64,000 nucleotides of DNA from contig NZ_JAAKGT010000009.1 in assembly GCF_011043625.1 (NCBI RefSeq), positions 124,001 to 188,000 of the forward strand, given 5' to 3'. Shown here piece after piece: positions 31,412 to 34,328 of the stretch. A program made the translations under genes and the position numbers. The stretch's first letter is position 1; every line of letters begins with the position of its first letter. The stretch is from Caulobacter sp. 602-2. Its GTDB lineage: Bacteria > Pseudomonadota > Alphaproteobacteria > Caulobacterales > Caulobacteraceae. The notes below the pieces were generated by a model. That model was not told the origin of the DNA. It saw nothing but the letters and a program-made list of their open reading frames with translations, and did not search any database.

Positions 31412-31687
31412 ATGAAAACCGCACTTCTCTGCCTCGCCGCGCTCGGCGTCCTGGCCTCCTCGGCCTGCACCGACAGCCGTCGCGCCCGCAACGACGCCAC
31501 CTGGAGCGACCTGCCGGCGGATGTCACCTGCTGGAGCTACGGGACCGAGGTCTTCAAGGGGCGGTCGACGGGCAAGGTCTCGTACGGCGACACCGGCCGC
31601 ATCTCGTTCGTCGACGCGGCCAACGGCCGCTACACCACGATCGATGGCGATTGCCGCGTCGTCTACCTGCCCAAGAAGGCGGCCTGA
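31412..31687 (+). CDS. Small secreted/lipoprotein-like protein
   Basis: A 91-residue protein with a signal peptide ending LASSACTDS; the Cys could be lipidated, though the lipobox is weak. The mature part is short and beta-rich (SYGDTGRISFVDAANGRYTTIDGDCRVVYLP) with two further Cys (VTCWSYG and GDCRV), which may form a disulfide. No known family. ATG 31412 is chosen because it gives the signal peptide; it ends 6 bases before the convergent MBL gene. Confidence 0.7.
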   Translation: MKTALLCLAALGVLASSACTDSRRARNDATWSDLPADVTCWSYGTEVFKGRSTGKVSYGDTGRISFVDAANGRYTTIDGDCRVVYLPKKAA

Positions 31688-32773: not shown

Positions 32774-32936
32774 CGCCGTTCAACTCCCCGCGCCGCGCGT
32801 CCTGGCCGTCTCGCCAGCCCATTTTTCATGGTCAAGCCGCGCCATGATTGCGCCCCCGTCGGACGACATCTTGACCCTCGATGCAAGGGGGGGCTTAAGT
32901 CCGCCCCGAGGAATCCACCCCCAGGAGACTACAGAC

Positions 32937-34271
32937 ATGAGGCCATTCGCGATCGGCCTGACGGCCGCCCTCGCGGTCGCCGCGCTCGTTCCGGCCGCCG
33001 CCTTTGCGGCGCCGAAGGATGCCAAGCCCGCCGCCGCCGCCGTCGACGCCAAGTCGCGTGAAGCCGGTATGAAGGAAGCTCCGCCCCTGGTCGCCCAGGC
33101 CGGCGTGGCCTGCCAGGTGTCGGACGCCCGCCTGATCGGCGCCGACAAGAAGTCGGCCACCTCCTACTACGAAGTGGCCTGCCAAGAGGGCATGGGCTAC
33201 GCGCTGGTGTCCAAGAAGGACACCGCTCCGCAGGCCTTCTCGTGCGTCGAAACCGGCCAGCCCGGCGCTGACGGCAAGGAATCGGGCCTGAAGTGCCTGC
33301 TGCCGGCCAACGCCGACGCCAAGCAGGGCCTCAAGCCGTACCTGGCCAAGGCCGGCGCGACCTGCGACCTGCAGAACGCCCGCGCCATCGGCACCGGCAA
33401 CAACAACTCGTTCTTCGAAGTCTCCTGCGCCGGCGGCACGGGCTACATCGTCCAGATCCCGGTGCCGATGAAGCTCGAGGGCACGGTGGCCAACAGCTGC
33501 CTGCTGTACGAGGAAGGCGGCAACATCTCGTGCAAGCTGACCGATCGCGCCACCCAGCTGCAGATCGTCGACACCCTGGCGGCCGCCGCCAAGAACAACT
33601 GCGCGGTCAAGGACAAGCGCTACATCCTGACCACCAAGACCGACAACTACTTCGAAGTCGCCTGCCAGGATGGCAAGGGCTACGTGCTGCAGCAGGCCGT
33701 GGCCGGCGGTTCGCTGGTTCGCGCCATCGACTGCGCCAACGCTCCGGGCGGCGCCGAGTGCACCCTGACCGACAGCCGCGCGGCCAAGACCGAGCAGGCC
33801 GGCCTCTACACCAGCCTGGCCAAGAAGGCCGGCTACGACTGCAAGGTCGAGTCCTACGGCCTGTTCCCGTCGCAAGACCCCAAGAAGGAAATCGTCGAGC
33901 TGAAGTGCTCGAACACCCCGCGGGGCGGCATCGGCGTCTTCTCGGTGGCCGACAACCGCGTCTATGACTGCGTCACCGGCGAACTGAACGGCTTCCGCTG
34001 CAGCTACACCAAGCCGGACGTCGAGTTCACCCGCCTGTGGGACGACCTCAAGAGCTACAACAAGGCCGGTTGCCAGGTCTCGGGCGCGCGCATCATCGGC
34101 CGCACCGACACCAGCGGCTTCGTCGAAGTGGCCTGCGCCGACGGCCTGCCGGGCTGGGTGCTGTCCTACCCGCTGAACCAGGCTTCGCCCAAGCCGAACG
34201 AGCTCCTGTCCTGCCTGCAGGCCAAGGGCGTCGGCGGCGGCTGCAAGCTGCCGACCAACATCAAGAAGTAA
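32937..34271 (+). CDS. Secreted protein of five tandem four-cysteine repeats
   Basis: A 444-residue protein with signal peptide (cleavage near AFAAPK) and, from about residue 57, five repeats of ~80 residues. Each carries four Cys in the order C...C...C...C with a conserved strand of the FEVACQDGKGYVL type after the first Cys pair and a SC...C pair at the end. I count twenty Cys in all. Such spacing predicts two disulfides per repeat in the periplasm or outside. No named family comes to mind. It has its own promoter region and a strong terminator. Confidence 0.82.
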   Translation: MRPFAIGLTAALAVAALVPAAAFAAPKDAKPAAAAVDAKSREAGMKEAPPLVAQAGVACQVSDARLIGADKKSATSYYEVACQEGMGYALVSKKDTAPQAFSCVETGQPGADGKESGLKCLLPANADAKQGLKPYLAKAGATCDLQNARAIGTGNNNSFFEVSCAGGTGYIVQIPVPMKLEGTVANSCLLYEEGGNISCKLTDRATQLQIVDTLAAAAKNNCAVKDKRYILTTKTDNYFEVACQDGKGYVLQQAVAGGSLVRAIDCANAPGGAECTLTDSRAAKTEQAGLYTSLAKKAGYDCKVESYGLFPSQDPKKEIVELKCSNTPRGGIGVFSVADNRVYDCVTGELNGFRCSYTKPDVEFTRLWDDLKSYNKAGCQVSGARIIGRTDTSGFVEVACADGLPGWVLSYPLNQASPKPNELLSCLQAKGVGGGCKLPTNIKK

Positions 34272-34295
34272 GAGTTCCTCGGAGCTCTGACGAAG

Positions 34296-34328
34296 AACCC
34301 CGCCGGTGCGAACCGGCGGGGTTTTTTT
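34296..34328 (+). terminator. Intrinsic terminator after the cysteine-repeat gene
   Basis: Twelve-base perfect stem AACCCCGCCGGT/ACCGGCGGGGTT with loop GCGA, followed by TTTTT, 25 bases after the stop. The strongest terminator in the window, consistent with a highly expressed gene. Confidence 0.93.

What the first reader, a model, noticed from the sequence alone, without database searches (positions are those of the whole stretch)
32937..34271. Secreted protein made of five tandem ~80-residue repeats with four cysteines each
The mature protein divides cleanly into five repeats with the same Cys spacing and a shared strand of the (F/Y)(F/Y)EVACxDGxGYV type, 20 cysteines in total. This predicts ten disulfides in a free-standing exported protein with its own strong terminator. 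I know no described family with this layout. It could bind carbohydrate, a ligand or the cell surface.
Basis: partly seen in the sequence, partly recalled or inferred. Interest (0 to 1): 0.8.

Follow-up and report, generated by a model that had tools for sequence, protein, structure and literature searches.

The report
Five-module disulfide-rich protein of Caulobacteraceae
The gene makes an exported protein built of five copies of a small, four-cysteine module that matches no family in the two family libraries searched; nearly every sampled member of one bacterial family carries a version of it, yet its job is unknown, so it is a clean and testable open question.

Summary
Window 32937-34271 (+) encodes 444 aa with a signal peptide and 20 Cys in five sets of four. 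Repeats 1, 2, 3, 5 are unmistakable in the single sequence; repeat 4 only by profile: a model built without it scores 50 of 50 orthologue copies above all 1000 shuffles. All 20 Cys are invariant in alignments of 36 and 50 orthologues. All 571 modules with four aligned Cys (of 585) keep a Glu three residues before Cys2. AlphaFold predicts helix plus four-stranded meander (one module: pLDDT 88.9); that module has no PDB or viral fold match at E<=0.001. NCBIfam has no match, Pfam only a sub-threshold one. It is a core gene of one bacterial family (294 of 299 sampled genomes, 22 of 22 genera), with relatives of 1 to 4 modules, and nearly absent from samples outside. It has its own conserved promoter-like site and terminator. 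Best reading: a disulfide-stapled multivalent binding scaffold of periplasm or surface, partner unknown. Main rival: multi-headed inhibitor or sensor ligand.

The parts
32871..32900 (+). candidate promoter: TTGACC (32871-32876), 18-base spacer, TTAAGT (32895-32900)
   Evidence: ATCTTGACCC invariant in 15 of 15 upstream regions aligned (the window and 14 of the 80 named loci); TTA[AT]G follows after 17 or 18 bases in 15 of 15. That this is the promoter is inference; the consensus scan listed none.
32923..32927 (+). ribosome-binding site AGGAG
   Evidence: read from the sequence; visible in most of the 15 rows
32937..34271 (+). coding sequence, 444 aa, five four-Cys modules
   Evidence: matches in 294 of 299 sampled genomes of the family
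32937..33008 (+). signal peptide, residues about 1-24 (AFA|AP); no lipobox
   Evidence: read by eye, no predictor run; residues 1-32 have pLDDT <50 in the model
33009..33056 (+). Ala/Lys/Pro-rich linker, residues 25-40
   Evidence: sequence, variable in the alignment
33057..33308 (+). module 1, residues 41-124
33309..33551 (+). module 2, residues 125-205
33552..33782 (+). module 3, residues 206-282
   Evidence: predicted alone (residues 203-282)
33783..34019 (+). module 4, residues 283-361, diverged copy
   Evidence: profile evidence only; Cys pattern kept; pairwise tests fail
34020..34268 (+). module 5, residues 362-444
33750..33818 (+). most conserved stretch, junction of modules 3 and 4 (residues 272-294)
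   Evidence: 11 of the 12 lowest-entropy 12-residue windows, which overlap each other, fall here; the twelfth is at 397-408 in module 5
34292..34327 (+). intrinsic terminator, 16-pair hairpin whose 3' arm runs into the T tract

Best explanation
Shown by computation: a single-copy gene with its own conserved promoter-like site and terminator encodes a 444-aa protein of five homologous modules, with a signal peptide and no lipobox (by eye). Each module is predicted to be one helix packed with a four-stranded antiparallel meander. Cys1 to Cys3 lie at strand ends and Cys4 in the tail after the sheet. A Glu sits invariantly in strand 2, in register with a frequent Arg of strand 1 (Gly instead in module 4 of the window protein). 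Inferred: the Cys form two disulfides per module (I guess Cys1-Cys2 and Cys3-Cys4, because Cys3-Cys4 close a loop of varying length), made in the periplasm by a Dsb-type oxidation route. The protein then works as a rigid, protease-resistant string of binding domains, a multivalent scaffold that holds a partner of the periplasm or cell surface peculiar to this bacterial family. The module 3/4 junction, its best conserved stretch, would be the main contact. Which partner it holds is not known.
For: 20 of 20 Cys invariant in 36 of 36 and in 50 of 50 orthologues (overlapping sets), with exactly 20 Cys after residue 37 in 50 of 50. Glu at Cys2-3 in 571 of 571 complete modules, Arg at Cys1+6 in 396 of 571. 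A single module folds on its own in prediction (pLDDT 88.9, pTM 0.80); the whole has pLDDT 85.5 but pTM 0.55, confident modules with uncertain mutual placement, as expected of domains on a string. Matches per protein vary (1, 2, 3, 4, 5) while the module is kept, more typical of binding domains than of an enzyme with one active site; two ORFs of 154 and 176 aa hold one module each. Twelve two-module paralogues: 10 score best as modules 1+2, two as 1+3 with module 2 within 1-3 bits. No His or Ser column is invariant in the 50 orthologues; the invariant polar columns besides Cys, Glu and Arg are K72, N125, D279, Y291, Y307, D402, N441, too few and scattered to point to an active site, though this does not exclude one. 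Matches in 294 of 299 sampled genomes of the family, 266 of 267 good ones. Both direct neighbours in the window lie on the opposite strand. In the 59 named loci with at least 15 kb, homologues of the metallo-hydrolase, ThDP-enzyme and AMP-ligase neighbours (named by eye) are found in 44, 43 and 46 (lower bounds, as flanks are cut; one of the 44 hydrolase hits, in L141, is not adjacent).
Against: No partner, ligand or phenotype is known. The neighbours look metabolic and give no functional hint. No fold match supports any binding family. The conserved module 3/4 junction could be structural rather than a contact. The module order is not uniform: of twelve 3-module proteins of genus g13, the middle module scores best as module 3 in seven, 2 in three and 4 in two.
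Confidence: 0.45

Rival explanations
1. A multi-headed inhibitor or periplasmic regulator: each module, like PepSY-type or Spi (I69) domains, docks on a protease or a sensor domain and holds it inactive.
For: The best Pfam hit is Inhibitor_I69 (Spi), E 8.9e-4 for the window protein, residues 64-124, seen in 7 of 50 orthologues at E<=0.1. A small exported PepSY protein of another bacterium, DbfQ, binds a histidine-kinase sensor domain, and PepSY domains are said to act in metal binding or protease inhibition (PMC12714742; abstract and passages seen). Weak Foldseek hits include a Bacteroides putative periplasmic protein (4poi, rank 3, E 0.26) and the siderophore reductase FoxB (7abw, rank 10, E 0.52); that these two are PepSY-related is recalled.
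Against: The I69 score (20.1 bits) is below Pfam's cut-off (25), and 1 of 24 diverse modules hits it at E<=1. No PepSY hit. No fold match of the module reaches E 0.001. None of the twelve window genes compared (the target included) is by eye a protease or sensor kinase.
Confidence: 0.25
2. A glycan-binding (lectin-like) protein of the envelope or of extracellular polysaccharide.
For: Export signal, multivalent, family-restricted; tandem disulfide-rich modules are common in glycan-binding proteins (recalled). A kdsB-like (lipopolysaccharide) gene, named by eye, lies about 5 kb away in the window.
Against: That kdsB-like gene is near in 3 of 59 loci only, with flanks cut. Whole-model hits to fungal lectins and propellers have TM of about 0.1 and are taken as artefacts of repeated strands.
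Confidence: 0.15
3. A redox buffer or metal-binding thiol protein that uses its 20 Cys chemically.
For: High Cys content; exported compartment.
Against: No CXXC: neighbouring Cys are 9 or more residues apart in the window protein and at least 6 within the 571 modules. Three of four Cys sit at strand ends in the model, as structural disulfides often do (recalled).
Confidence: 0.07

Closest known systems
Spi / MEROPS I69 inhibitor domain (Pfam PF13734)
   Same: A stretch of module 1 (residues 64-124) resembles it, E 8.9e-4
   Different: Score below Pfam's cut-off; 1 of 24 modules matches; four invariant Cys per module; tandem array
PepSY periplasmic domains (for example DbfQ, PMC12714742; abstract and passages seen)
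   Same: Small exported domain protein; weak Foldseek rank for 4poi (its PepSY kinship is recalled)
   Different: No Pfam PepSY hit in 50 orthologues or 24 modules; invariant Cys; five copies; no kinase by eye among the genes compared
Secreted cysteine-rich repeat proteins, SCREPs (PMC6262176; abstract and outline seen)
   Same: Architecture: secreted tandem Cys-rich domains; high avidity through several heads is the idea borrowed
   Different: The cases named in the abstract are animal venom peptides; no sequence relation claimed or tested

Membership tests
Inhibitor_I69 (PF13734) | Pfam curated score reached | tested here: not met
   20.1 bits against 25
Inhibitor_I69 (PF13734) | inhibits a C10-type cysteine protease (recalled) | not testable with these tools
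   none
PepSY | match to a PepSY profile | tested here: not met
   no PepSY family among the 12 Pfam families hit by 50 orthologues at E<=0.1 or the 9 hit by 24 modules at E<=1
PepSY | PepSY-like fold | tested here: inconclusive
   Foldseek of one module: no hit at E<=0.001; 4poi at E 0.26, TM 0.35; the second aligner was unavailable
any NCBIfam family | match at E<=0.01 | tested here: not met
   0 of 50 members
relative of known structure by sequence | sequence match to a PDB chain | tested here: not met
   best E 0.8 for the protein, none for the 120-module profile, best 0.15 for the 24-module profile

The most novel reading that the evidence does not exclude
A previously uncatalogued, independently folding, disulfide-stapled domain (helix plus four-stranded meander, invariant E-x2-C) that arose in or near one bacterial family and there became a near-universal envelope protein, mostly with a fixed five-module order, and with a clade-specific and possibly important function.
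Probability: 0.5. Interest if true: 0.65.

Novelty: new variant of a known kind. Interest (0 to 1): 0.48.

Why it matters
A gene with matches in 266 of 267 good sampled genomes of a family that includes the cell-biology model Caulobacter, with invariant Cys anatomy and no family, fold match or function found here, is a gap in a well-studied envelope. It can be tested directly in a laboratory Caulobacter strain. It also offers a small, probably stable natural repeat module.

Tried and rejected
Whole-model Foldseek hits (prolyl endopeptidase-like, LGI1, propellers, nucleoporins, fungal lectins; 106 at E<=0.001, best 1.6e-6) were rejected as artefacts of repeated strands: in the 50 rows shown TM is at most 0.15 and rmsd 17-23. 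Two weak module hits outside the family in the phylum scan (G838 E 1.6e-4, G908 E 0.0016) were judged chance, not proven: the first lies in a 113-aa frame antisense to a 419-aa ORF, the second covers 45 codons among long ORFs of other proteins. One hit outside the family, G646 (E 1.8e-36 with A1), is a real module protein but occurs in 1 of 5 genomes of its own family, in a draft with 5% contamination; transfer or contamination cannot be told apart. A3 holds two modules of that very protein, so its A3 E-values are circular. Natural Cys losses were sought to infer disulfide pairing: none found; 13 of the 14 incomplete rows of 585 lack a Cys because the match was cut there, the last is the G838 chance hit. 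Gene neighbours were considered as a functional hint and dropped. Plasmid and phage collections: no match to the protein. A promoter scan by consensus listed none; the conserved site came from the alignment. Literature: ten searches, of which I saw listings and starts of abstracts, showed no description of this protein; I could not learn its locus tag in the model strain, so papers that list it by tag alone would be missed. Codon use: few codons of a 'rare' list of my own (0.04) and 11 GAA to 9 GAG, unlike most of 47 ORFs compared; this hints at strong expression but was not calibrated.

Full report
What is there. The ORF at 32937-34271 (+) encodes 444 residues: a signal peptide ending near AFA|AP with no lipobox (read by eye), an Ala/Lys/Pro linker, and five modules of 77-84 residues with four Cys each. 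The terminator is a 16-pair hairpin at 34292-34327. Upstream, ATCTTGACCC is invariant in 15 of 15 aligned regions (the window and 14 of the 80 named loci), followed after 17 or 18 bases by TTA[AT]G in 15 of 15, so the gene looks like a one-gene transcription unit; calling this the promoter is inference.

Is it more than chance? Repeats 1, 2, 3 and 5 are certain from the window alone (0 of 1000 shuffles for each of six pairs). Repeat 4 is not: shuffles reach its four pair scores 151-494 times in 1000. Profile evidence rescues it: a model of the other four modules scores all 50 orthologous module-4 copies (minimum 12.9 bits, window copy 23.0) above the best of 1000 shuffles (8.8). In an unguided alignment of 250 modules from 50 proteins all four Cys columns are filled 250 times. 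Of 585 module matches from all loci held at that point, 571 have all four Cys aligned; 13 miss one only because the match was cut, and one is a chance hit. These matches were found with a Cys-bearing profile, so they favour Cys-keeping modules. All 571 carry Glu three residues before Cys2; 396 carry Arg at Cys1+6. By strand register of the module model (strands 22-30 and 34-41) those two residues face each other; that is an inference from the secondary structure, not a measured distance.

Structure. AlphaFold with 50 orthologues gives mean pLDDT 85.5, pTM 0.55; a single module with 120 module sequences gives 88.9 and 0.80: helix, four-stranded meander, short helical turn. Foldseek with the single module finds nothing at E<=0.001 in the PDB or among viral models; with the whole model it lists 106 at that level, and the 50 shown have TM of at most 0.15. 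Sequence and profile searches of the PDB give nothing below E 0.15. Pfam gives a sub-threshold Spi inhibitor hit and weaker chance-level ones; NCBIfam gave two hits far below cut-off at E<=10 and none at E<=0.01 for 50 members.

Distribution. Own genome: one copy; a second hit at E 0.07 covers only residues 7-56, and the module profile finds the same five modules only. Genomes of the family: 294 of 299 sampled, 266 of 267 good ones, 22 of 22 genera (the five misses are four drafts 61-85% complete, and G004, 99% complete in 590 contigs). Other families of the order: none of 24 with the protein; with the module profile all 41 matching genomes of 200 belong to the family. Class: 5 of 385, four of the family plus G646. 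Phylum: 13 of 398, eleven of the family plus two rejected. Named records, 80 kept of 103, are titled Caulobacter (including C. vibrioides DSM 9893, L091), Phenylobacterium, Caulobacteraceae or Caulobacterales bins, a few 'Proteobacteria' bins and one bin titled Brevundimonas vancanneytii.

Architecture. Among 133 distinct ORFs with module matches in the loci held, 101 show five matches, 3 four, 13 three, 13 two and 3 one (not a random sample; L065 and L113 are cut by contig ends, one of the one-match ORFs is the G838 chance hit, weak modules may be missed). The other two one-match ORFs have 154 and 176 aa. Two-module paralogues of 228-250 aa were found in 11 of 61 genomes, all of the same genus. 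In five (G035, G007, G033, G021, G002) they lie 22-25 kb from the main gene; in G026 they are on the same contig but 343 kb away. Of the twelve scored, ten look like modules 1+2 and two like 1+3 with near ties; the thirteenth two-match protein, L157 of G646, scores as 2+3. Genus g13 has many 3-module proteins: of twelve scored, the first module is of type 1 in twelve, the second of type 3, 2 or 4 in seven, three and two, the third of type 3 in eleven; but two g13 genomes, G141 and G150, have ORFs with five matches. In one g13 genome (L199) two 3-module proteins flank a metallo-hydrolase gene that is 57% identical over 356 aa to the neighbour of the window gene, so the 3-module form sits in the orthologous place. 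Orthologous positions are closer than different positions: against window module 3, the module 3 of 23 other proteins is 37-75% identical, modules of other positions 19-39%. The order was thus fixed before the genera holding it diverged.

How it probably works. The repeat anatomy with invariant Cys, variable copy number, lack of an obvious catalytic set and lone expression fit a multivalent binding scaffold in the periplasm or outside. The most conserved stretch is the module 3/4 junction (11 of the 12 lowest-entropy windows, overlapping), which I take as the likeliest contact. This mechanism is inference; I give it 0.45. A PepSY/Spi-like inhibitor or regulator is next (0.25).

What is new. 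The module reaches the cut-off of no family in the two libraries searched, and the ten literature searches named under Tried and rejected showed no description; the library holds only open-licence papers. As a kind, tandem disulfide-rich secreted domains are known (SCREPs, PMC6262176, abstract and outline seen), hence 'new variant of a known kind', with the possibility that the fold itself is new left open.

Noticed in passing
L199:8458-9417 and L199:10686-11336 (longer ORF in L161): In a g13 genome two 3-module relatives flank the homologue of the metallo-hydrolase gene beside the window gene, probably a local duplication in the orthologous place.
   Followed up: partly
L041:12875-13573; L200:9315-10004: The two-module paralogue lies beside hydrolase-like genes, near a YchF-type GTPase gene and the cytochrome bc1 genes (names read by eye).
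   Followed up: partly
L205:8401-8865 and L206:9009-9539: ORFs of 154 and 176 aa in two g13 genomes hold a single module each, a small natural form to study.
   Followed up: no
L197 (G646 contig 62, 11,062 bases); protein at L157:206-1267: The one clear relative outside the family: two module matches plus a split third with a Gly-rich insert, on a contig with hopanoid-type genes (named by eye); 1 of 5 genomes of its family.
   Followed up: partly
window 31412-31687 (+): Small lipoprotein-like gene with two Cys beyond the presumed lipobox, between the MarR-type and metallo-hydrolase genes; no match at E 1e-8 among ORFs of 60 aa or more in the 59 loci compared.
   Followed up: no
window 32937-34271: Codon use differs from most of 47 ORFs compared: few codons of my 'rare' list (0.04) and GAA about as frequent as GAG; a hint of strong expression, not calibrated.
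   Followed up: no
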